Source: a virus
Reading direction: 5' to 3' (one strand)
DNA: 24,008 nucleotides
Virus record (IMG/VR): IMGVR_UViG_3300007352_000051
Span: 1-24,008 of that record
Position numbers and translations under genes: made by a program. Numbering within the stretch: position 1 is the first letter of the stretch; each line of letters opens with the position of its first letter. Under the pieces are notes generated by a model that was not told where the DNA came from, made no database searches, and saw only the letters and a program-made list of their open reading frames with translations. Shown here piece after piece: positions 1-24,008 of the stretch.

Positions 1-341
1 ATACTTTTAACCTAGTCCCCAAGAGCTATAGGCTTGGATTTATTCCAACGATGAATCCGAGTGTGTTTGAAGATGTGACTTTTTTTGCGACGGATAAAAC
101 TGTTACTACGCTGCTGCCTAAACTTCAAAAGGCTTTTGGGCTGCCTTTTGTTGCTACAGGAAATTGGACAGACCCTAAGAGCTATCGAGATTATGTAATG
201 CTTCGTTGCTTTAACGACAGAGCCGGGACAGAAAGCATCTTTGAACCCATCGGCTATTACGCAGTCCTCGAAGCCCAACACGGAACACAAGTTATGCTTA
301 ACTATATCCGTGCCGGGCTAATTGAGGCGGGACTACTTTAA
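1..341 (+). CDS. Unrecognised plus-strand protein, 3' part only
   Basis: This is the only plus-strand gene I accept. The frame is open from the left edge of the window (first full codon at 3) to a TAA at 339-341, giving at least 112 residues, so the start lies outside the window; the ATG at 51 is an internal methionine or a later start. The composition is protein-like, mixed alpha/beta, with aromatic-rich stretches such as GNWTDPKSYRDYVMLRCFND, and no signal peptide or membrane segment in the visible part. I do not recognise a family. It converges on the minus-strand ejection-protein gene and their 3' ends overlap by 9 bp (333-341) with no obvious terminator between them, so this is probably the border between two oppositely transcribed phage modules. 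The minus-strand ORF over the same bases (12-290) reads less like a protein and is taken as its shadow. Confidence 0.6.
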   Translation, partial: TFNLVPKSYRLGFIPTMNPSVFEDVTFFATDKTVTTLLPKLQKAFGLPFVATGNWTDPKSYRDYVMLRCFNDRAGTESIFEPIGYYAVLEAQHGTQVMLNYIRAGLIEAGLL

Positions 342-9742: not shown

Positions 9743-10210
9743 TTACTCGAAATTCAATCTAGCAAACTTGCCAAAAACTCGCTTAGCTGCGATATCATAT
9801 GCTTGTGCAGCGGCTTGCTCTGTATGAAAATAACCTAGGTGTTCTTCAAAACCATTATACTTTATTTTAGCTCGCCAGCGCCCCTCATTTCGTGTCACGC
9901 CTTTATATTGTGATGCTGTATTTTTTCGTTTTCTTAAATTACCATTATTTTGCGATTGGCAACAAAGGCGTAAGTTTTCTTTTCGGTGGTCTAAACGTGA
10001 TTCTTTATGGTCTACTTGCAAAGGGCCTGCGTAGTCTAAAAGATAACGATGCAAATAAACACTGCCACCCCCAGGGAGGTTAGCTCTAAAATAAACAACA
10101 CCCCTTCTATTATAATTTGGATACCAACTGAGCTTAGATACTTTTTCAATATCTTCAGCATCAATAATAACTTCGTGCCCGCCAATATTTAATCTTGTAA
10201 TCGCTGCCAT
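9743..10210 (-). CDS. HNH homing endonuclease with AP2 DNA-binding domain (155 aa)
   Basis: Residues 54-90 carry an HNH nuclease core: H54 in the first strand, then VDHKESRLDHRKENLR with the D67-H68 pair and the NLR helix (N79), followed by N88/N89. Residues 102-153 are an AP2/ERF-type domain (YKGVTR, W112, then LGYFHTEQAAAQAYDIAAK and FGKFARLN). This architecture is well known in free-standing phage homing endonucleases, which cut intron- or intein-free alleles and spread themselves. The gene starts directly after the stop of the LamG adhesin (TAA-ATG) and stops 4 nt before the nozzle gene, so it is inserted precisely between two virion genes. Its first six residues (MAAITR) are identical to those of the nozzle protein downstream. 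It is not expected to be a virion component. Confidence 0.92.
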   Translation of the reverse strand: MAAITRLNIGGHEVIIDAEDIEKVSKLSWYPNYNRRGVVYFRANLPGGGSVYLHRYLLDYAGPLQVDHKESRLDHRKENLRLCCQSQNNGNLRKRKNTASQYKGVTRNEGRWRAKIKYNGFEEHLGYFHTEQAAAQAYDIAAKRVFGKFARLNFE

Positions 10211-11563
10211 TTAATTCACCACGTCGTTGAGATAGCGTCGGAGATAATTCGTAAGAGAAGTATTGAGAAGCGTGCTTGCTGCATCGCTGAAGTTATTCAT
10301 GTCATCCGTAGAAGCATTAGAAGTGCCAGAAGATGAATTAGTGCTGATGGCATCAGATAGGTTATTCATACTATCGGACACAGTTAAATAGGAAGCTAAG
10401 AATAAGACAGCTGCATCGCTTAGAGTTAAAGTATCACTAAATGTTGGGAAATAATTAAATCTTAAAGCTGTGCTGTCACTAAGGCTAAAGGAGTCTCCAG
10501 GATTAATCGAAGCATAAAGAGAGAGCGCGGCCGCATCGCTAAGACTCAGTGTATCACTTGCAGTCTGCGCATTGGGTCCAAATGGAACAAGCGTAGCTTC
10601 ATCACCAAGCCCATAAAACATTGAATCGTATGCTTCAACTGGAAGACTAAAAGCATGGGTTACTGCATCGCTTAATTCTAGCGTATCGCTAACAAGATTG
10701 CCATAGCCTAGCGACGCATAGTCAAAGTTATTAGCTGCGAGTGAATTAACTTCAACGCCAATTGGACCATCGGGGCCTAATTGCCAAACTTTGCCATCAC
10801 CCCAACTATTAAGGTCGCTGCCAACTGTAACTAATATCCCATTAATAGCAGGAAGGCGCCATTTACGCGCTTGCGGAAAAGTTAGAAGATCATACGGCGC
10901 ATCTTTAAGCCATAGAATCTCTTCTTTGCTAATTGCACGATCATAGACATAAATATACCTAAAAGTCGCGCCAATCTGCTCAGAGTTAACCGCATTGCCG
11001 CCAATATAAACTGCACGAGTGCCAGTGTAAAGGCCGCTTGCTGTCCTTGAGTTTATGAGAACTGCATCATCATATGTCTTCTGCGAGAATACATCATCAA
11101 GTGTAAACGCTAAATGGAGCTGGCGGCCAACAATAGTCGCGACCGTTGCATCTAAATCATCAAACCACATCGAAAAACGAATTGTTGTAGCATTTTGTGG
11201 CCTAATAATGATGATCTGCCGATTAGAGCCTGAAATACCCATTGAAAAAGTAGCGCCTACGGTCGTAGACGTGCCTAACCCAGAGCATCCAAGAATAATT
11301 GAATAAGGTTTATTAGCAATATCCGGGCCTTGTGTATATGACCCTGCGGTGCCAACAGGAAGCACCATATCTCTATTGCCATCCCAAGAACATGTGTTCT
11401 CTACGGAAATAGCATTTTGAGCTACAAGATCATATACACCAGTTCCCGAACCCTCCAAAAAAGGGTACGCCGCTACAAGACCCTGTGTAAGCGGGTGGCC
11501 CCACTTAATCTGTGATCCCGCAGGAGGCTTTTTGTAGCCTCTCCCATTGGAGGAATATGCCAT
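10211..11563 (-). CDS. LamG/concanavalin-like tail adhesin with Ser-Asp repeats (450 aa)
   Basis: Residues about 25-230 look like a LamG/concanavalin A-like jelly-roll. The pattern GLVAAYPFLEGSG, then a D-L strand and the closing YIYVYDRAISKEEILWLKD is typical of LamG-like domains in phage fibre proteins, which bind glycans. A linker (about 230-290) is followed by at least six imperfect repeats of 'SDTLxLSDAxxL' to residue about 430. The start at 11563 follows the stop of the 198-aa gene by a few bases, with only a weak GGGT ribosome site. It lies between a beta-rich structural protein and the homing endonuclease. The likely role is a tail fibre or head fibre that binds host surface sugar; no enzymatic residues are recognised. 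Confidence 0.68.
   Translation of the reverse strand: MAYSSNGRGYKKPPAGSQIKWGHPLTQGLVAAYPFLEGSGTGVYDLVAQNAISVENTCSWDGNRDMVLPVGTAGSYTQGPDIANKPYSIILGCSGLGTSTTVGATFSMGISGSNRQIIIIRPQNATTIRFSMWFDDLDATVATIVGRQLHLAFTLDDVFSQKTYDDAVLINSRTASGLYTGTRAVYIGGNAVNSEQIGATFRYIYVYDRAISKEEILWLKDAPYDLLTFPQARKWRLPAINGILVTVGSDLNSWGDGKVWQLGPDGPIGVEVNSLAANNFDYASLGYGNLVSDTLELSDAVTHAFSLPVEAYDSMFYGLGDEATLVPFGPNAQTASDTLSLSDAAALSLYASINPGDSFSLSDSTALRFNYFPTFSDTLTLSDAAVLFLASYLTVSDSMNNLSDAISTNSSSGTSNASTDDMNNFSDAASTLLNTSLTNYLRRYLNDVVN
10270..10693 (-). repeat. Tandem Ser-Asp (SDTLxLSDA) repeats of the LamG adhesin
   Basis: Reading the minus strand, residues about 291-430 contain VSDTLELSDAVT, ASDTLSLSDAAA, GDSFSLSDSTAL, FSDTLTLSDAAV, VSDSMNNLSDAI and TDDMNNFSDAAS, spaced roughly 20-30 residues apart with variable hydrophobic links. 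They suggest a repetitive beta stalk. Similar units occur in the 289-aa protein and once in the 529-aa protein. Confidence 0.8.
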
Positions 11564-11568
11564 TTTAA

Positions 11569-12165
11569 TTACCCAATCGAATCACCAGAAACCATGTGAG
11601 CTTCAACTGCAACTGCTTGGCCCGTATTATCCGCATCAACAACTAAACGAAGGCGTGAAATAGCTGTAAGATCAAGCTGTGCTACAAACATTTCAGCTTG
11701 GTCGTAGATAGTAGCGCCTGTCTGAGCATTTACAAGGTTATCTTCAATTGTAACACTCGTATTCGTCGAGACAGACTTAATGCGGCCCCATTCGCTATTA
11801 GCAATAGTTCCATTGTCAATATAGATAAGGTCTGCAACAGTAAGGTTAGTCGTGGAGGCTACTGTAATGACGTTAGTTCCAGCGCTAACTGTACCCGATA
11901 CTGCTTCCGATTCCGCGGCCGCAGTTTGAGTTAGAAATCTTGCAATAGGGTACCAATGTCCATCAGCAGAGCTTTTAGAACTCGCTTCAATGCGAAATTC
12001 TACCGCTTGCGTGAGCGCAGTAGTAGCCCTGCGGCCAAAGTGAATAAAGATAGTGGCCGCAAGTTTAGTGCTTACGTCCAGCGCGCTTGAGATTAGTACC
12101 GTGTTTGACGCTACGCTTTGCAGCGCTAGAACTTCTGTTCCTGCCGTTTTTGTGATTGTTGCCAT
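11569..12165 (-). CDS. Beta-rich virion structural protein (198 aa)
   Basis: The ATG at 12165 follows TAAAGAGATTAAAG and lies inside the 3' end of the glycosyltransferase-methyltransferase gene, overlapping it by 101 bp in another frame. The protein is rich in Thr, Ala, Val and Ser with repeated short beta-strands. A segment near residues 88-120 (GTVSAGTNVITVASTTNLTV, then DLIYIDNGT) resembles a small barrel/binding module seen in many phage tail, collar or decoration proteins. There are no cysteines or membrane segments. The position before the LamG adhesin suggests a collar, fibre-base or decoration role. The exact family is not recognised. Confidence 0.65.
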   Translation of the reverse strand: MATITKTAGTEVLALQSVASNTVLISSALDVSTKLAATIFIHFGRRATTALTQAVEFRIEASSKSSADGHWYPIARFLTQTAAAESEAVSGTVSAGTNVITVASTTNLTVADLIYIDNGTIANSEWGRIKSVSTNTSVTIEDNLVNAQTGATIYDQAEMFVAQLDLTAISRLRLVVDADNTGQAVAVEAHMVSGDSIG

Positions 12166-13372
12166 CTTTAATCTCTTTAGCCTCTTTTACAGGGGCACTA
12201 AGTATCCCCGTCTTCTTTCCACGAAGAATCATGTTATAGCCCGATTCTTCAACGTTAACTTCATTTACACCATTATCTTTAAGGGCCTGCGCTACTCGCT
12301 TAGGCCATAGCCCATTGTAATGAAAGTCATAAGGATTACTCTGTGCACCGTAAAGAACATTAAGCACATCATTGCTTACTACGTCAGACTTAAAGTTCTT
12401 AATCGCCCATTCAATATTCGGAAGAACCAGAAAAACTTCACCGCCTGGCTTGAGAATTCGGAGCCATTCTTTCAAAACTTCTTCCCACTCGCTTCGACCC
12501 AAGTGTTCAAGGACGTGCGAAGAGAATACCAAGTCGAAAGACTCATTATCGAAAGGAAGCAGCCGCACATCACAGCGATAATCAGGGTTTACGTCATCAC
12601 GAATATCTACACGAACTAGATCGTAGCCCGGAAATTGCTCACTTCTATCGAGTGGGCCGCATCCAATGTCAACGCCCCGTTTAGCCTTCTCAAGATTTAG
12701 CTTACGGGTCGGAAGAGAATTAGATGGAAGGGAATACGCTTTATCTCCGTATACGTCAACATGTTTACAGAGCAAGGAAGAATCGCACCAGACTTTATAT
12801 TTCGTCTCTTCCAACACCTTCTTGCAAAAGTAGAGGTCTTCCGTCCACTGCTCGGCCATGTTGCGGGCATCTTTGAAGTCGTCATCGTCGATTGTCTTAA
12901 ACCAAGGCTTAGGGAGTTCTTTAAGCACATCTGTACGAATTAGAGTACAGTCCATTCCAAGACCAGTAACTTCAAAGAACTCGCCAGCTTTCCAATCCCA
13001 ATAAGACCCAACGCCATTTCCACGAAACACAAGTGGCGCGGGAGGATCACACTTACTGCAATAAACACCACCGACTACGCCAAGATTCGGGTCTTGCTCA
13101 GCACGAAAGATAAGCTGTTTAAGAGTTGCAAAAGGCGGAATTACATCGTCGCCAAGAAAGAAGACATATTTATGACCCTGCTTAACTGCCTCTTCGCATA
13201 CTTCATTTCGAGCCTGATCTACCGCTTTTCCCCACGGAACCATTACGTTCACGGAATAATTAATCGGAGGATTAAGCCCCTTATATTGAAGCGCCCACTC
13301 AAGAGTAATCGGGCGGCCAAGTGTAGGAATACCAATAAGTAGCCCAGGGCCACAAGTAAGTTTCTGTTGCAT
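12065..13372 (-). CDS. Glycosyltransferase-methyltransferase fusion protein (435 aa)
   Basis: Two enzyme domains are visible. Residues 9-210 form a GT-A-type glycosyltransferase: IGIPTLGRP strand, DQARNEV, then KYVFFLGDDV with the metal/sugar-nucleotide D75-D76 pair, and an acceptor-side WTEDLYFCKKV (E178-D179) with H204 downstream. Residues 232-330 form a class I SAM-dependent methyltransferase: RGVDIGCGP (motif I, SAM loop), VRVDIRDD (acidic end of strand 2), LPFDNESFDLVFSSHVLEH and LRILKPGG. The last ~33 residues are basic (KNGRNRSSSAAKR) and are encoded where the next gene overlaps. AGGTGA 9 nt before the ATG supports the start. The likely product adds a sugar and methylates it or a neighbouring residue; target (virion protein or host glycan) is unknown. 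Confidence 0.8.
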   Translation of the reverse strand: MQQKLTCGPGLLIGIPTLGRPITLEWALQYKGLNPPINYSVNVMVPWGKAVDQARNEVCEEAVKQGHKYVFFLGDDVIPPFATLKQLIFRAEQDPNLGVVGGVYCSKCDPPAPLVFRGNGVGSYWDWKAGEFFEVTGLGMDCTLIRTDVLKELPKPWFKTIDDDDFKDARNMAEQWTEDLYFCKKVLEETKYKVWCDSSLLCKHVDVYGDKAYSLPSNSLPTRKLNLEKAKRGVDIGCGPLDRSEQFPGYDLVRVDIRDDVNPDYRCDVRLLPFDNESFDLVFSSHVLEHLGRSEWEEVLKEWLRILKPGGEVFLVLPNIEWAIKNFKSDVVSNDVLNVLYGAQSNPYDFHYNGLWPKRVAQALKDNGVNEVNVEESGYNMILRGKKTGILSAPVKEAKEIKDGNNHKNGRNRSSSAAKRSVKHGTNLKRAGRKH

Positions 13373-16994: not shown

Positions 16995-17165
16995 TTAGTC
17001 TCGGCCCAATAGCCCACTCAAAGAAGTAATAGCAAGCCCCAAAAGCTCAATATCTTCATCTTTATAGGTATGCCCCGTAAAGATAGTAGCAACCCCCAGG
17101 ATTACTCCCCCCGTAGTTCTAGGATTTTTCACGAGTCTCGTCAGCACGCTTCTCAGAATTCCCAT
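16995..17165 (-). CDS. Small holin-like membrane protein (56 aa)
   Basis: I start it at the ATG at 17165, which has GGAGA 5 nt upstream. A TTG at 17177 would lengthen it by four residues but has no ribosome site. It overlaps the methyltransferase 3' end by 47 bp. Residues 16-30 (RTTGGVILGVATIFT) and 39-54 (IELLGLAITSLSGLLG) are two short hydrophobic segments separated by a charged turn (HTYKDEDI). Small phage proteins with this 'TT-G-hydrophobic-D-x-hydrophobic' plan are often annotated as holin-like. No endolysin is next to it, so a lysis role is unproven; a virion membrane peptide is an alternative. Confidence 0.6.
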   Translation of the reverse strand: MGILRSVLTRLVKNPRTTGGVILGVATIFTGHTYKDEDIELLGLAITSLSGLLGRD

Positions 17166-17712
17166 ATTTATCTCCAAAGATTACTTCCCGCAAATGCTCC
17201 GCATAAGTAATACGCGGGCGAGCTTTCCGAGCTGTGAGAATGGTGTACTGAGGATTAGCATCTTCGCTCTTAATATGAATGTTATCAAACCCCACCGAAA
17301 GTATAAGATCTTTAAGTTCAGCCGAATCCATAGCGGACACGTGAAAATCAGAAGGGCTGAGTTGTCGGCCATAAATGCAAGCCTCCCAGAAATCACGCTT
17401 ACCACGATGGTTTTCTAGCCAGTATTTAATGCAAGTGCTAAATTCAGGATAGCCTAAAATTAGCCTTCCATTTTCAGCGAGTGCCCGATGAATTTCAGTA
17501 AGAATCGTAGGATGCCATTTCTTTTCAATATGCTCAATCGTGTGCATGAAAAGAACTTCTTCAAAGACACCCTCTTCAAATGGAAGAGGCTTCTTTAAGT
17601 CAACTACCAAATCAGGCTCTAGAGCCTCATCGCAATCAACATTAAGGAAGCCTTCCAGCTTACATTGGCCACAGCCAAGGTTCAACTTCTTAGGGGGAGC
17701 TTTTTCATCCAT
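17119..17712 (-). CDS. SAM-dependent methyltransferase (197 aa)
   Basis: The class I methyltransferase fold is clear: PKKLNLGCGQ (motif I, SAM-binding loop, residues about 7-16), FLNVDCDE (acidic end of strand 2), PLPFEEGVFEEVLFMHTIEH (strand 4 region and post-motif helix) and HRALAENGRLILGYPE. A segment after it (DFWEACIYGRQLSPSDFH) resembles the substrate cap of glycan- or lipid-related methyltransferases. I chose the ATG at 17712, 2 nt after the 57-aa gene's stop; a GTG three codons upstream is the alternative, and neither has a good ribosome site. It follows a glycosyltransferase, so a methylated sugar product is a reasonable guess; the substrate is unknown. Confidence 0.78.
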   Translation of the reverse strand: MDEKAPPKKLNLGCGQCKLEGFLNVDCDEALEPDLVVDLKKPLPFEEGVFEEVLFMHTIEHIEKKWHPTILTEIHRALAENGRLILGYPEFSTCIKYWLENHRGKRDFWEACIYGRQLSPSDFHVSAMDSAELKDLILSVGFDNIHIKSEDANPQYTILTARKARPRITYAEHLREVIFGDKYGNSEKRADETREKS

Positions 17713-17714
17713 AA

Positions 17715-17888
17715 TTAGCACATTTTAGTAGTCTTAACTTCAATATATAACCGCGTGCCTGGATGAGTTTGTTTAGAGATTGCTTCAATCCAATGAATGA
17801 AATCAAAAATATCATCAAAATTAACTTCATACTCAGCCGCGCTTATAGGAATTAAATCCTTTGCAGGAATCTTAAAATTAACTTTCAT
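17715..17888 (-). CDS. Small protein between glycosyltransferase and methyltransferase (57 aa)
   Basis: Found by reading the 156-bp gap on the minus strand. An ATG at 17888 opens a 57-codon frame ending in TAA at 17715-17717. It begins MKVNFKIPAKDLIPISAAEY and ends TRLYIEVKTTKMC, with alternating hydrophobic and charged residues and an aromatic helix (DDIFDFIHWIEAIS). It overlaps the end of the glycosyltransferase by 11 bp and stops 2 nt before the methyltransferase ATG, the spacing used throughout this operon, which argues that it is real. The ribosome site is weak. No family is recognised; a partner or chaperone of the two enzymes is possible from position alone. Confidence 0.6.
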   Translation of the reverse strand: MKVNFKIPAKDLIPISAAEYEVNFDDIFDFIHWIEAISKQTHPGTRLYIEVKTTKMC

Positions 17889-18642
17889 TAAGAGACTCCA
17901 AAATCTTCATTATCTGTTCCGGGCTTCTATCGAGCCTATGCGGTTCCTCAGTTTGATCTTTGAGATTCTCAACTCTCTTTTCATCAAACTCTTTCCAAAG
18001 ATGCACATTGCCAGGCCCAACGAAATCGCTGCCCAAATTGTGCATAGTCTCTACGTTTACGTCAACGAAGACTTCAAGCTCTGGAATCTGCTCTTTAGCC
18101 CGTTTACAAAAGAAAACGTCTTCAGTCTGATAAGCAGAAGTTACGAAGAAAGGTGGCTGGACCTTCTTCAGTAAATCCACCTTAATGAGAACGCACGAAA
18201 AACCAACCGCATCACACTTAAGAAGGCCCGTTTCAGGGTCCGCCTTCTCTTTATAATCCGTGACATAGTGGCATTTCTTGTATGCTTCATCCGTGAAGTT
18301 AAAGATCATCGGATGGTAAGGATAGCCACGAATATGAGTCACGCCAGCGATAATATCTTTATCCCAACGCTGAAGCTGAGAGAAAGCATGAATACCAACG
18401 AGAACATCATCGTCGATAAACATTAGATAATCCATCTCAGCATCTAATGCAATCTTGGCCGCTTCATTGCGCATACGATCAATTGACATGCGCCGCGGAG
18501 CACATAATGAGAATTCCATCTCTTCCCCGGCCGCGTTCTTTAAGCCTTTAAGAACGCCGAGGCGAAAGGCAAACTGCATGTGATTCGCGTAATTATATTG
18601 ATCTACCGCGTTAAGAGTATTGATTCCGAGTAGAGTTTTCAT
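17878..18642 (-). CDS. GT-A-fold glycosyltransferase (254 aa)
   Basis: The domain plan is that of a family-2-like glycosyltransferase: strand LLGINTL, SIDRMRNEAAKIAL, then DYLMFIDDDV with the DxD-type D77-D79 cluster that binds metal and sugar nucleotide, IIAGVTH, a CDAVGFSCVLIKVDLL acceptor/loop region, TSAYQTEDVFFCKRAKE with E174-D175, and a late VDVNVETMHNLGS (H201). The same succession, including the TED-x-(F/Y)FCK motif, is found in the N-terminal half of the 435-aa fusion, so the two are related. It begins right after the terminator that ends the capsid block and has no ribosome site. It probably glycosylates a phage or host component in the cytoplasm during assembly. Confidence 0.8.
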   Translation of the reverse strand: MKTLLGINTLNAVDQYNYANHMQFAFRLGVLKGLKNAAGEEMEFSLCAPRRMSIDRMRNEAAKIALDAEMDYLMFIDDDVLVGIHAFSQLQRWDKDIIAGVTHIRGYPYHPMIFNFTDEAYKKCHYVTDYKEKADPETGLLKCDAVGFSCVLIKVDLLKKVQPPFFVTSAYQTEDVFFCKRAKEQIPELEVFVDVNVETMHNLGSDFVGPGNVHLWKEFDEKRVENLKDQTEEPHRLDRSPEQIMKILESLNES

Positions 18643-19272: not shown

Positions 19273-20355
19273 TTAGCTCAAAGTAAGCGTGCGCGCCACT
19301 TTGCCGATTACGCCATGCTTGCGACGATTGTTCACGCAAACATTGCCCATCCAAGCGATATGGCCCACGCGAGAGTCACCGTTATGCGGCTTAACAAAAG
19401 TCTTGCCATTTTCATCGGTGAGCATCGAGAAATCGCGCCCGGCCATATACTTAATGCGAAAGAACTTCGTGTTAAGGAAGTAAATCGTTCCGCCCGTTGT
19501 GGTGGAAGTATCGGTAGTTCCAGCGAAAACGTTGGGGACTTTCTCATCCCAAACAACAAGAGACTTCATCCACTTGATGTTCTCAAAGGGGAAGTTCTGA
19601 TCGCTAGAAGTCTGGCGATACCGCTTGTAAATTGCCATGTGGAACAATTCGTAGGTCGTCTGATCCATAAGAATGAGATCGGGCGAACCACCAGTTCCAC
19701 GAGAACAATTGTTATACATGGTCAACATTTCTTGCAGAAGACCATCTCCCGTAGTGGCCGCACTCGTAGTGCTAAAGTTGCGCCACCAGGAATAGGTGCT
19801 GCCCGAAATATTGCCCACGGTTTCAGCAGTGGTACTATATTCAATGAGCTTCGGAAGAGGCTCAATTGAAGAAGAACCATTGTTGCCGCTAACTTTGGGA
19901 GTCGTGAGAGCACCATTACCACTGCCTTGCAGCAAGTGAGTAATGAAACCTTCCTGAATTCCCATTTCAGCCTGCATGATCTTAGTCTTGACGAGATCGA
20001 CGATCTTTTCGCGATTCTTCAAAACTTCGTCCATCGAGTAAACGATGGGAATTGCAAGCTGACGCCATTCATATACCGCAGACGTAACCCCATCAACCGG
20101 AGTTACACCCAACTCATCATAACCCGCATACGAATCCATCGTACCGAGTTGGTACATCAGGGGAACCTGAATGTACGATCCACCATTCTCACTCTCGTAA
20201 AGAGAAGAGTTAATTACCTTAGAATAGAAAGCATTAGACTTGCCGATGTTATCGACAATCTTCTTAGAATAGTTAGCAAGAGTCTGAGAGAATAGAGAAT
20301 CAAGATAAGTGGTAATCTGCGACGGATTTGTTGCAGTTCCGAACGTGATTGCCAT
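19273..20355 (-). CDS. Major capsid protein, HK97-fold (360 aa)
   Basis: It directly follows the scaffold gene and precedes the decoration gene, the standard position. Features include an N-terminal helical arm (ITTYLDSLFSQTLANYSKKI), a GSYIQVPLMY strand (E-loop region), WRQLAIPIVYSMDEVLKNRE and VDLVKTKIMQAEMGIQEGF (spine helix of the P-domain), LILMDQTTYELFHMAIYKRY (A-domain) and a C-terminal FFRIKYMAGRDFSML block. The length, about 360 aa without an N-terminal delta domain, agrees with a separate scaffold gene. AGGAG with a following AGGAA before the ATG gives a strong ribosome site. Long plus-strand ORFs over this gene are shadows. Confidence 0.85.
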   Translation of the reverse strand: MAITFGTATNPSQITTYLDSLFSQTLANYSKKIVDNIGKSNAFYSKVINSSLYESENGGSYIQVPLMYQLGTMDSYAGYDELGVTPVDGVTSAVYEWRQLAIPIVYSMDEVLKNREKIVDLVKTKIMQAEMGIQEGFITHLLQGSGNGALTTPKVSGNNGSSSIEPLPKLIEYSTTAETVGNISGSTYSWWRNFSTTSAATTGDGLLQEMLTMYNNCSRGTGGSPDLILMDQTTYELFHMAIYKRYRQTSSDQNFPFENIKWMKSLVVWDEKVPNVFAGTTDTSTTTGGTIYFLNTKFFRIKYMAGRDFSMLTDENGKTFVKPHNGDSRVGHIAWMGNVCVNNRRKHGVIGKVARTLTLS

Positions 20356-21174: not shown

Positions 21175-21414
21175 TTACCCTTCATCTTTTCCATGAGCTT
21201 CTGCTTCATGGCCGCTTTCATTGTTCCCTTTTTCATTCCGCAAGGCATCCTTTTCTTTAACCTCAAACTTAGCTAGAATAGCATCTGTAAGCTTTTTTAG
21301 ATCAATTGTCCCGTCAAGTGTAATTGATCCGCGGGACAAAGAATACCAATCTTGCCGAGATAGAACATCCTCAACAATAGCATCTGTAAGAAACGCAAGT
21401 AATTTAGTCCTCAT
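21175..21414 (-). CDS. Small unrecognised head-operon protein (79 aa)
   Basis: The ATG overlaps the portal stop as ATGA (21411-21414), so it is translationally coupled to portal. Residues 1-25 (MRTKLLAFLTDAIVEDVLSR) are helical and amphipathic; residues 30-50 include SITLDGTIDLKKLTDAILAK; the C-terminal 30 residues are charged and disordered-looking (KEKDALRNEKGNNESGH). It precedes the scaffold gene. Small proteins at this place are often assembly factors or minor virion proteins, but I recognise no family. Confidence 0.65.
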   Translation of the reverse strand: MRTKLLAFLTDAIVEDVLSRQDWYSLSRGSITLDGTIDLKKLTDAILAKFEVKEKDALRNEKGNNESGHEAEAHGKDEG

Positions 21415-23228
21415 TGCACTAATTGATTATCCAATTGACTCTGTATTTCGTTTGTCGTCGGAGGCGTTTGTTGTTCAATCATTCTTTGTGCTTGACCACC
21501 ACTCGGAGCCATTGCCCCAGATGGATCACCCCCTCCTAATGCGCCAGCTTGCGCCGCCTGACCAATCATTTGCAGCAGCGCCGCATTTTGCATCTCTCGA
21601 ATGACGCGCTCATTACGATAGCCAATTTTATAAGCCGCTTCACGAATAAGTAGCGGTGAAAGTGAAAGCTGTGGAAAATTCTGTAGAACGGCGAGAAACT
21701 CAAGAAACTTAGTTTTCTCTAGCTCATTCTGATTCGGCGAAGTCGACGCAACGTCAATGAGAACTACAAAGTCATAGCCATCGTCAAGCTGATCCGGCCA
21801 GATTTGGTTATAGCTACGATTGGCCGTGTAGTCCATTAGCATCTGAGACTTATTTCCCTGCGGAGTCTCAGCATACATGGGCTGCGTAAAGCGATCTCGT
21901 GCGGTGAGAATAGCCTCACGAACAATATAGGCCAACCACGAATTTACTTCTTCAACTTCTGCGCCTTCGCGGATACTTGCGCGTCCTTCGATAATATTCG
22001 CTTGCGTGGCGGTAACACGATCTCCAATGCCGCGCGCCTCTTGCGATGTTGCAGAAACCAAATTGAAGTCATCTTTAGGAACTACGAGAGCTTGATCGGA
22101 TGCTTTACCTAAATCGGGAGAAGCGATGGGTTCAATACCAGAATGTTTGTAAAAGATAACTGTGCCATCAGGCCCATGCGTAAACTTATCCATCTCTTCA
22201 GCAGAGATAGAGTTTTCTTTAATCTGAAACTTACGAGTAAACCTACGCCGATGATTCCTCGCCTGCTCTCTGGCTTCGTTAATTTCATCTTGGGGCGAGA
22301 GCCACTGAAATACGGGAGGAATCGGATAGAACCCTTCAAAGTCCAAATCCCAGCGAAGATCAAAGATGGGAAGGCGCTCAAAGTCTTTGCTAAAGCGAAT
22401 CTCCCCATCCGAGTCTGTGAGAATGTAGCGCTTTCGTGCCCGATTATCCCAAATGTGCCAAATCTTAATTAAATCTTCCGCTTCCTCAAGAGTAGGGTCT
22501 GTATCCGTAGTTGGATCTTCCGGTGAAACCGCGGCCGCACCGAGTTCAGTTCTAAAATCTTCAACCTTCTTCTTTAGTGCTTTCGCAAGGTCTTTAATGT
22601 GAACGAACTCATAGTAACCAACCCAATCACAAGACTTCAGAGTGTCTGCTTCATTGTTAGCGCCTACTCTAAATCGTTTCGGATTGATATACTTGAAATA
22701 GATGCGTTCAGATTCGAGAGTCTCACGCGGCTCCGTAACCACACGGTCTTTATTAACTTCCGGATTGCGGTCAGAAGCATATTCGGGTTTATCAAGATTA
22801 GGATTCTCTATAAATGATGCTGAGTAGCCCACTTCCACCACGCCAAATCGGGTGAAAGAGTCCCGCGCGGCCTTCTTAAGAACAAAAGCAAACTCTGAGT
22901 TCTGGTCAGTTAGAATCGTATTAATGAGCGATTCTTTAATCTGCGCAGAAGCAATGGCCTTTTCGAGATCGAAGTTCGCATCTCCAGGCTTCGGTGTGAT
23001 TATTACGCGGGGATTCCGAACGAGATAGTTTGCTAGCTTGATCTTAACCGTTGAATAGATCATATTCAAGGTATAAGGTGCAGCGTTTTCTTGTTTAGAA
23101 ATGTCCCACTGGAATCCCCGGTAATATTGCTCCAATACCTCACACTTATACTGCGTAGCCCACTTGTTATAGCGGGCATTGGCAGCAGTAATTTTGCCAA
23201 CCCAAGGAGATGTGAGAGATTGGGGCAT
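21411..23228 (-). CDS. Portal protein (605 aa)
   Basis: The portal forms the dodecameric ring at the capsid vertex through which DNA passes. Signs in order: an N-terminal helical region with KCEVLEQYYRGFQWD, PYTLNMIYSTVKIKLANYLV, a large alpha/beta wing (RFGVVEVGYSASF, ERIYFKYINPKRFRV), EDLIKIWHIWD, FEGFYPIPPVFQWLSPQDEI and EAREQARNHRRRFTRKF (stem helix), QALVVPKDDFNLV and GDRVTATQANIIEGRASI. The C-terminus is Gln/Gly/Ala-rich (QAAQAGALGGGDPSG), as in many portal barrels. It lies just after terminase and before scaffold. The length is usual for short-tailed phages. The ribosome site is weak (AAAAG), and the start lies 7 nt after the 71-aa gene's stop. Confidence 0.9.
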   Translation of the reverse strand: MPQSLTSPWVGKITAANARYNKWATQYKCEVLEQYYRGFQWDISKQENAAPYTLNMIYSTVKIKLANYLVRNPRVIITPKPGDANFDLEKAIASAQIKESLINTILTDQNSEFAFVLKKAARDSFTRFGVVEVGYSASFIENPNLDKPEYASDRNPEVNKDRVVTEPRETLESERIYFKYINPKRFRVGANNEADTLKSCDWVGYYEFVHIKDLAKALKKKVEDFRTELGAAAVSPEDPTTDTDPTLEEAEDLIKIWHIWDNRARKRYILTDSDGEIRFSKDFERLPIFDLRWDLDFEGFYPIPPVFQWLSPQDEINEAREQARNHRRRFTRKFQIKENSISAEEMDKFTHGPDGTVIFYKHSGIEPIASPDLGKASDQALVVPKDDFNLVSATSQEARGIGDRVTATQANIIEGRASIREGAEVEEVNSWLAYIVREAILTARDRFTQPMYAETPQGNKSQMLMDYTANRSYNQIWPDQLDDGYDFVVLIDVASTSPNQNELEKTKFLEFLAVLQNFPQLSLSPLLIREAAYKIGYRNERVIREMQNAALLQMIGQAAQAGALGGGDPSGAMAPSGGQAQRMIEQQTPPTTNEIQSQLDNQLVQ

Positions 23229-23235
23229 TTAACTT

Positions 23236-23451
23236 TTATTCTTTTTCATTGATAGCAATAGCCGCGTTAGCCCACATAACAGCTTGCTGAAGATTAGTAA
23301 ATGCAAGCGACTTTTCGCGGCTATCTGGCGTGTGTAATCTAAACGCATGGGCTAATTCTTTAGCAAGCGTACGAATATGCTCATAGCGTTCCTGTTGCGT
23401 GCCAAAGGGTTTATGGTACGTAAATGTATTTTCAATTTGGGTGCTAGTCAT
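23236..23451 (-). CDS. acb2: Acb2-like cyclic-nucleotide sponge, anti-CBASS candidate (71 aa)
   Basis: The family pattern is 'FTYH.p...Q.eRYe.iR..akeLA......P.sRE.SLA.t.L..AvMWANAaIA.ne'; here I see FTYHKPFGTQQERYEHIRTL near residues 10-29, TPDSREKSLAFTNLQQAVMW in the second half and ANAAIAINEKE at the end. This is the Acb2 (T4 Vs.4-type) helical hairpin, whose hexamers bind cyclic di- and trinucleotide signals and so silence CBASS defence. The aromatic residues F10 and Y12 and the Arg/Tyr of the first helix sit where family members are conserved. GAGG 8 nt before the ATG overlaps the terminase stop, giving a good start. Length (71 aa) is right for the family. The assignment is from memory of the family pattern; ligand binding is not shown. 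Confidence 0.75.
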   Translation of the reverse strand: MTSTQIENTFTYHKPFGTQQERYEHIRTLAKELAHAFRLHTPDSREKSLAFTNLQQAVMWANAAIAINEKE

Positions 23452-23456
23452 AAGAA

Positions 23457-24008
23457 TTACCTCAGCGCCTTCGGTGCCACTTTTCTATTCGCTAGATACT
23501 GAAAGAAAGCAAAACTCCGCTTCGGCATTGCACGCTGCTTTTCAGCTACGCCGCCTCCGTGCATTGCAATGAAGTAACGGACACAATCATAGGCATGATC
23601 GGGAACACTCTTTTCTCGGTCATCTGAATAGATTGACTTACCGTTATCTGAGCCAATGAGAACTCTTCGTTGTGCTCCAATTTGCGTAATAGCGTGATTA
23701 CATCCTTCAGGATATTCCTTGCTTCTTCGTATGAAATATATTCCAGGCGCAGGGGACTGCCCGGTAACGGGATGCTTCGTTTTATATGACAGTTTAAGGA
23801 GCTCATTTATCCTATTGCGAGTAGCCATCTCGTTATTATCAGCAGGTGCCCATGCAATAGCAGGAGCTTCAATATCTGCCGTAATATACTCGTCAGCTAC
23901 ACTCCAAAATCCGCCATCCTTTTGGGAGGCTTTACGAAAGATCGAAGGATCGGCATAATTTCCTGAGTAATACTCTTGGATATCTTGGCCGCCTACGCTT
24001 CGATACGT
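23457..24008 (-). CDS. Terminase large subunit, C-terminal 183 residues
   Basis: The frame is open to the right edge, so the ATG at 23828 is an internal methionine and the gene begins outside the window. The visible part is the RuvC-like nuclease end of TerL: YYSGNYADPSIFRKASQKDG near the edge, then FWSVADEYITAD, IAWAPADNN, INELLKLSYKTKHPVTGQ, a beta-hairpin PAPGIYFIRR and the terminal VPDHAYDCVRYFIAMHGG. The DHxxDxxRYF signature carries the last acidic residue of the nuclease site and ends most TerL proteins. The ATPase half (Walker motifs) is not in the window. TerL cuts concatemers and drives DNA through the portal. It heads the leftward operon seen here. Confidence 0.88.
   Translation of the reverse strand, partial: TYRSVGGQDIQEYYSGNYADPSIFRKASQKDGGFWSVADEYITADIEAPAIAWAPADNNEMATRNRINELLKLSYKTKHPVTGQSPAPGIYFIRRSKEYPEGCNHAITQIGAQRRVLIGSDNGKSIYSDDREKSVPDHAYDCVRYFIAMHGGGVAEKQRAMPKRSFAFFQYLANRKVAPKALR

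What the first reader, a model, noticed from the sequence alone, without database searches (positions are those of the whole stretch)
23236..23451. Acb2-like anti-defence gene sits inside the terminase-portal junction
The 71-aa product shows the Acb2/Vs.4 family signature (FTYH near the N-terminus, RYEHIR, SRE-SLA, MWANAAIA). Acb2 proteins bind cyclic nucleotides and block CBASS. Here the gene has its own good ribosome site and lies between TerL and portal, so it would be made with late head genes rather than early. That suggests late-stage signal sequestration, or packaging of protein into the particle. The family is established; the timing and any virion link are inferences.
Basis: partly seen in the sequence, partly recalled or inferred. 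Interest (0 to 1): 0.7.

Follow-up and report, generated by a model that had tools for sequence, protein, structure and literature searches.

The report
Nucleotide-sponge gene inside phage packaging operon
An uncultured phage carries a small gene of a known family that soaks up bacterial alarm molecules, and it sits in a slot between two DNA-packaging genes where its relatives carry nothing or other small cargo genes, so it is probably made together with the virus particle.

Summary
Window 23236-23451 (minus strand) encodes a 71-aa member of the Acb2/Tad1 hairpin family (Pfam PF24729, 73 bits against a cut-off of 27). The predicted fold is three helices, and its best solved match is T4 Vs.4/Acb2 bound to cGAMP. 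The tyrosine needed for binding in T4 Acb2 is kept. The gene lies 5 nt after terL and 7 nt before the portal gene, with a good ribosome site. A partner contig overlaps both ends of the window. It completes TerL and places the replication genes on the opposite strand, which supports late expression.

What is new is the context. In 66 dereplicated TerL-portal junctions of related uncultured phages, 37 are tight (mostly overlapping stop and start codons). 29 carry inserts, mostly small ORFs without a known family. Only the window carries acb2 there. The junction is therefore a cargo slot, and acb2 is one occupant. Late-module placement recurs in unrelated phages of this family (portal-acb2-protease, endolysin-acb2-holin).

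Best reading: a cyclic-nucleotide sponge co-expressed with the late proteins that can trigger such defences. Ligand, timing and oligomer are untested. No evidence supports packaging into the virion.

The parts
23236..23451 (-). acb2-like gene, 71 aa, Acb2/Tad1 hairpin family
   Evidence: PF24729 E 2.3e-20; phrog_1454 E 5.7e-25; AF2 pLDDT 95.6, helices 3-9, 19-40, 45-68; Foldseek top hit 7uq2 Vs.4 with cGAMP
23460..23463 (-). ribosome site GAGG, 8 nt before the acb2 start, inside the 3' end of terL
   Evidence: read from the sequence
23457..24008 (-). C-terminal part of terL (runs off the window)
   Evidence: continued in L082 with exact 99-bp overlap, Walker A GGFGNGKS and Walker B-like ALLDQAEEID; Terminase_6N E 1.8e-4 just under cut-off; relatives with the same TerL-portal order
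21411..23228 (-). portal gene, 605 aa
   Evidence: phrog_12082 portal E 5e-15, phrog_332 head-tail adaptor E 1.7e-6
19273..20355 (-). major head protein gene of the same co-directional block
   Evidence: phrog_9953 E 3.9e-43
23229..23456 (-). 228-nt insert between the terL stop and the portal start, relative to the tight ancestral-type junction; it holds only acb2
   Evidence: junction comparison with relatives

Best explanation
The gene encodes a short Acb2-type sponge: a helical-hairpin protein that probably forms a hexamer and binds cyclic oligonucleotide alarm signals of CBASS-like systems without cutting them. It was gained as cargo in the TerL-portal slot and is translated from the late packaging and head mRNA. 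The sponge would accumulate in step with the portal and head proteins. That is when systems triggered by such late proteins would make their signal. Shown here: family, fold, position, insertion relative to relatives, opposite strand to replication genes. Inferred: hexamer, ligand binding, late timing, benefit.
For: Family match far over the cut-off, and T4 Vs.4 matches the same Pfam model with a similar score, 71 bits. Model pLDDT 95.6 with one short and two long helices, the layout described for Acb2 (PMC12043709; PMC10419184). Best solved fold is T4 Vs.4 with cGAMP, probability 0.94, TM 0.64. Best solved relative by profile is 'Acb2 homolog 43', 76 aa, six chains in the entry. Y12 aligns with T4 Y8 (Y8A loses binding, PMC12657218) and PaP2 Y11; the invariant R27 aligns with PaP2 K26. 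Tight spacing and no promoter-like site on the strand. Replication genes on the opposite strand of the partner contig. Late triggers have precedent: an acb2-deletion phage escaped CBASS partly through a major capsid mutation (PMC10419184); a TIR-based system senses capsids (PMC11312562); the portal YonE activates the NADase SpbK (PMC11984713).
Against: No binding, expression or infection data. Foldseek E-value is weak (0.5), as expected for a small helical protein. T4 F82, which stacks on the ligand, is A66 here (but PaP2 Acb2, solved with cGAMP, also has Ala there). The match to T4 Vs.4 by profile comparison alone is modest (probability 49, 22 columns). The experimentally studied Acb2 genes sit in early or replication regions (T4; PaMx41/PaP2), so late expression is not needed for function. 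The host is unknown.
Confidence: 0.6

Rival explanations
1. Cargo with no timing meaning: the gene landed in a permissive slot, is transcribed by read-through, and its late timing is incidental. It works as a sponge whenever it is made.
For: The same slot holds many unrelated inserts in relatives, including an HNH endonuclease; the closest relatives of this acb2 sit next to a DNA polymerase (L004), near an exonuclease (L003) or upstream of a TerL-like gene (L002), so the gene is found in both settings.
Against: Late-module placement of the family recurs in unrelated phages: portal-acb2-protease (L023), TerL-acb2 (L012), portal-x-acb2-major head, endolysin-acb2-holin.
Confidence: 0.25
2. A sponge for another signal, such as gcADPR of Thoeris or cA3 of type III CRISPR, rather than CBASS dinucleotides.
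For: The Pfam family spans Acb2 and Tad1, and the C-terminal motif SRE..A.T...A.MW.N is shared with Tad1. Acb2 and Tad1 also bind trinucleotides (PMC12043709).
Against: The protein lacks the N-terminal beta domain that helps form the Tad1 gcADPR pocket (length 71 aa, model all-helical); the Tyr and basic residue of the Acb2 dinucleotide pocket are kept.
Confidence: 0.3
3. A sponge packaged in the virion and injected with the DNA, so that it acts at the very start of infection.
For: Only the neighbourhood of head genes.
Against: No packaging signal or virion data; unrelated proteins occupy the same slot in relatives; relatives of the gene are found outside head modules.
Confidence: 0.04
4. A packaging or portal accessory factor unrelated to counter-defence.
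For: Tight linkage to terL and portal.
Against: None of the other 65 measured dereplicated junctions of related phages has it; the profile is absent from 18 of 18 and, over cut-off, 50 of 50 related records; family members sit in many other places in other phages.
Confidence: 0.03

Closest known systems
Acb2 of phage T4 (Vs.4) and of Pseudomonas phages PaMx33/PaP2
   Same: Same Pfam hairpin family as T4 Vs.4, same predicted helix layout, binding Tyr and a basic residue aligned.
   Different: 71 aa against 88-93 aa; the inter-helix loop is shorter by about 20 residues; T4 F82 is Ala; gene in the late packaging block, while T4 vs.4 lies among tk-vs-regB genes and PaP2/PaMx41 acb2 lies in the primase-MazG operon opposite the structural genes.
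'Acb2 homolog 43' (PDB 9ptq)
   Same: 76 aa, hairpin only, PEGREKS motif like PDSREKS here; best solved match by profile.
   Different: Only 58 profile positions align, 23.6 bits; its ligand is not known to me.
Tad1 (Thoeris anti-defence 1)
   Same: C-terminal hairpin with SREN..ALTH.EEALMWMN motif.
   Different: Tad1 has an N-terminal beta domain; this protein does not.
phrog_1454 genes of Paenibacillus, Mycobacterium, Gordonia and Streptomyces phages
   Same: Same full-length short family; 221 phage records at E up to 0.01, some already annotated as cyclic nucleotide sequestering proteins (PMC13348362, PMC11953737).
   Different: None of those inspected lies exactly between adjacent TerL and portal genes; GiJojo has TerL-x-acb2-five genes-portal.

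Membership tests
Acb2/Tad1 hairpin family (PF24729) | Profile match over the curated cut-off | tested here: met
   73 bits against 27
[quoted passage not shown]
   Helices 3-9, 19-40, 45-68, pLDDT 95.6; layout as described in PMC12043709
Acb2 (anti-CBASS 2) | Closest solved fold is an Acb2 | tested here: met
   7uq2 Vs.4 with cGAMP ranks first, probability 0.94, but E 0.5
Acb2 (anti-CBASS 2) | Dinucleotide-pocket residues (T4 Y8; PaP2 Y11 and K26; T4 F82) | tested here: inconclusive
   Y12 and R27 match; A66 replaces F82 as in PaP2. The role of K26 is from memory.
Acb2 (anti-CBASS 2) | Homo-hexamer with three dinucleotide and two trinucleotide sites | not testable with these tools
   Only single chains can be predicted here; 9ptq has six chains
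Acb2 (anti-CBASS 2) | Binds cyclic oligonucleotides and blocks CBASS | not testable with these tools
   Needs binding and infection assays
Tad1 | N-terminal beta domain plus hairpin | tested here: not met
   71 aa, no strand in the model

The most novel reading that the evidence does not exclude
The TerL-portal junction in this uncultured phage lineage (distantly related to Myxococcus phage Mx9) is a dedicated slot for late-expressed counter-defence and other cargo genes, and phages repeatedly place nucleotide sponges in late modules because late virion proteins are the triggers of cyclic-nucleotide defences.
Probability: 0.25. Interest if true: 0.65.

Novelty: new member of a known kind. Interest (0 to 1): 0.42.

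Why it matters
If the sponge is made with the head proteins, signal sequestration can be timed to the trigger, which would change how counter-defence genes are looked for: they are usually sought in early regions. The comparison also gives a practical handle. The same TerL-portal slot in dozens of related phages holds small genes of unknown function, and one occupant is a known counter-defence family, so the other occupants are good candidates for a counter-defence screen.

Tried and rejected
Tad1 membership was rejected because there is no beta domain. Virion packaging was found to have no evidence. A packaging accessory role was rejected because the gene is absent from relatives. NCBIfam gave no match. 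Single-sequence search of solved structures found only weak matches (E 0.12 or worse); a profile was needed. An exact search for the terL-acb2 junction in viral contigs found no second copy, so there is no independent contig with the same junction. No cultured relative of the TerL was found; the head protein has only distant ones, Myxococcus phages Mx8/Mx9 and others at 25-29% identity. The bacterial genome scan gave one unnamed MAG contig with a tight TerL-portal junction, so the host stays unknown. Literature searches for a described TerL-portal cargo slot found none in the held library.

Full report
What is there. The ORF at 23236-23451 is on the minus strand and encodes MTSTQIENTFTYHKPFGTQQERYEHIRTLAKELAHAFRLHTPDSREKSLAFTNLQQAVMWANAAIAINEKE. 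It matches PF24729, the Acb2/Tad1 hairpin, with 73 bits against a cut-off of 27, and phrog_1454 over almost its full length. A profile made without the window protein scores it at 120 bits; the best of 1000 shuffles scores 9. Comparison with relatives shows third-position change as in a selected gene.

Neighbours. Transcription runs from high to low coordinates: terL (cut by the window edge), 5 nt, acb2, 7 nt, portal, then a head block with a major head protein. GAGG lies 8 nt before the acb2 start, inside the end of terL. The TerL call rests on a second contig, IMGVR_UViG_3300007352_000055 (L082/L189). It matches the high end of the window by exactly 99 bp, and the low end of the window matches this same contig over 79 bp, 211 nt in from its other end. 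The two contigs are therefore most likely one phage of about 45.6 kb in two pieces (my arithmetic). The joined ORF has Walker motifs and a Terminase_6N match just below cut-off.

Timing. On the partner contig the primase, DNA polymerase, Sak4-like annealing protein, exonuclease and helicase genes are on the strand opposite to terL. The region around terL-acb2-portal has no sigma-70-like site on the coding strand and no terminator-like site between the three genes. This is what one expects of a late operon with divergent early genes. It is inference, not a transcript.

Fold and residues. With 38 relatives from viral contigs the AlphaFold2 model has pLDDT 95.6 and helices 3-9, 19-40 and 45-68. 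Foldseek ranks T4 Vs.4 with cGAMP first (probability 0.94, TM 0.64, E 0.5), then Tad1. By sequence profile the best solved relative is 'Acb2 homolog 43', 76 aa, six chains in one entry. Aligned with T4 Vs.4 and PaP2 Acb2, Y12 falls on T4 Y8 and PaP2 Y11, and R27, invariant in 39 sequences, falls on PaP2 K26. Y8A in T4 is reported to disrupt dinucleotide binding (PMC12657218); the part of K26 is from memory. T4 F82, which stacks on the base, is A66 here. PaP2 Acb2, solved with cGAMP (8H2J, PMC11722364), also has Ala there, so this does not exclude binding.

The insertion. TerL and portal searches gave 95 loci with both TerL and portal, 67 after dereplication at 95% TerL identity; 66 could be measured. 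In 37 the gap is at most 40 nt, and in 31 it is between -15 and 14 nt, typically overlapping stop and start codons (TAATG, TGATG). In 29 (the window included) there is an insert, in 27 of them of 120 nt or more. The inserts encode mostly unrelated small ORFs: an HNH endonuclease (PF13392), proteins with HExxH-like motifs, small membrane proteins, and many with no family. No other junction has acb2. The nearest TerL relatives are L122, with an unrelated 70-aa ORF in the slot, and L111, with a tight junction. PF24729 is absent from 18 of 18 related records, the partner contig included. Among 50 more there is one match just under cut-off, in G078, elsewhere in the genome and on the strand opposite to its TerL. 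The distant relative Mx9 also has three small genes between terL and portal. So the junction is a cargo slot, and acb2 is a lineage-specific occupant. The inserts were called by a simple script and a few may be portal extensions.

Is late placement general? In phages with the same short family the gene is found in late modules: portal-acb2-head protease (L023), TerL-acb2 (L012), portal-acb2 (L052), a gene-acb2-TerL (L029); Quhwah portal-x-acb2-major head; Jace endolysin-acb2-holin; prophi91-3 lysin B-acb2-holin; Bing, Meibysrarus and PSonyx holin-acb2; Bernal13 acb2-TerS-TerL; GiJojo TerL-x-acb2; LilyLou acb2-x-TerL. It is found in replication or other regions in Paenibacillus Bob, Gordonia Switzerland, BengiVuitton, Lactococcus 1706, SecTim467, Octobien14 and Mollymur, and a few genes before the terminase genes in Cheetobro and Marshawn. 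Of 18 annotated representatives that I picked by hand, 9 are late, 2 near the terminase and 7 early or other. This is a survey, not a test of enrichment. The experimentally studied Acb2 genes are not in structural operons.

Mechanism. The best reading is a sponge made with the late proteins. Its logic has precedents: phages that lost acb2 escaped CBASS partly by a major capsid mutation (PMC10419184), a TIR-based system senses capsids (PMC11312562), and the portal YonE activates the SpbK NADase, with a separate phage counter-defence (PMC11984713). None of this is shown for this phage; its host is unknown.

Verdict. The protein is a new member of a known family in an uncommon but recurrent kind of place. 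The cargo slot between terL and portal is the part that deserves follow-up.

Noticed in passing
L105-L185, TerL-portal junctions: The junction is an insertion slot for unrelated small genes in 29 of 66 dereplicated related phages (window included); several families recur (HExxH-like proteins in L124, L155, L165, L170, L174; a 72-aa family in L150, L154, L159).
   Followed up: partly
L189:1-60 (IMGVR_UViG_3300007352_000055, low end): The contig begins with Illumina P7 adapter and index-primer sequence, an assembly artefact in the public record.
   Followed up: no
window 1-79 and 23910-24008: Both window ends match the same partner contig, so window and partner are probably one circularly closed phage genome of about 45.6 kb.
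   Followed up: partly
window 17119-18642 and 12065-13372: A glucosyltransferase-like gene and methyltransferase-like genes (phrog_1574, phrog_842, phrog_5399, phrog_6636) lie within the head and tail region, perhaps virion or host-surface sugar modification.
   Followed up: no
window 9743-10210: HNH endonuclease (phrog_99 E 2.7e-32) in the late block, next to a gene with a LamG-like domain at 10211-11563.
   Followed up: no
L038:5221-5388: An acb2 relative of only 55 aa that lacks the loop and SREKS segment, probably an in-frame deletion.
   Followed up: no
GenBank records of Paenibacillus phages, e.g. KT361655, MH460826: Members of the Acb2 hairpin family are annotated as phosphomannomutase, probably wrongly.
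   Followed up: no
L188:1926-2171 (G078): A related phage carries a distant hairpin protein (26.1 bits, just under cut-off) on the strand opposite to its terL.
   Followed up: partly
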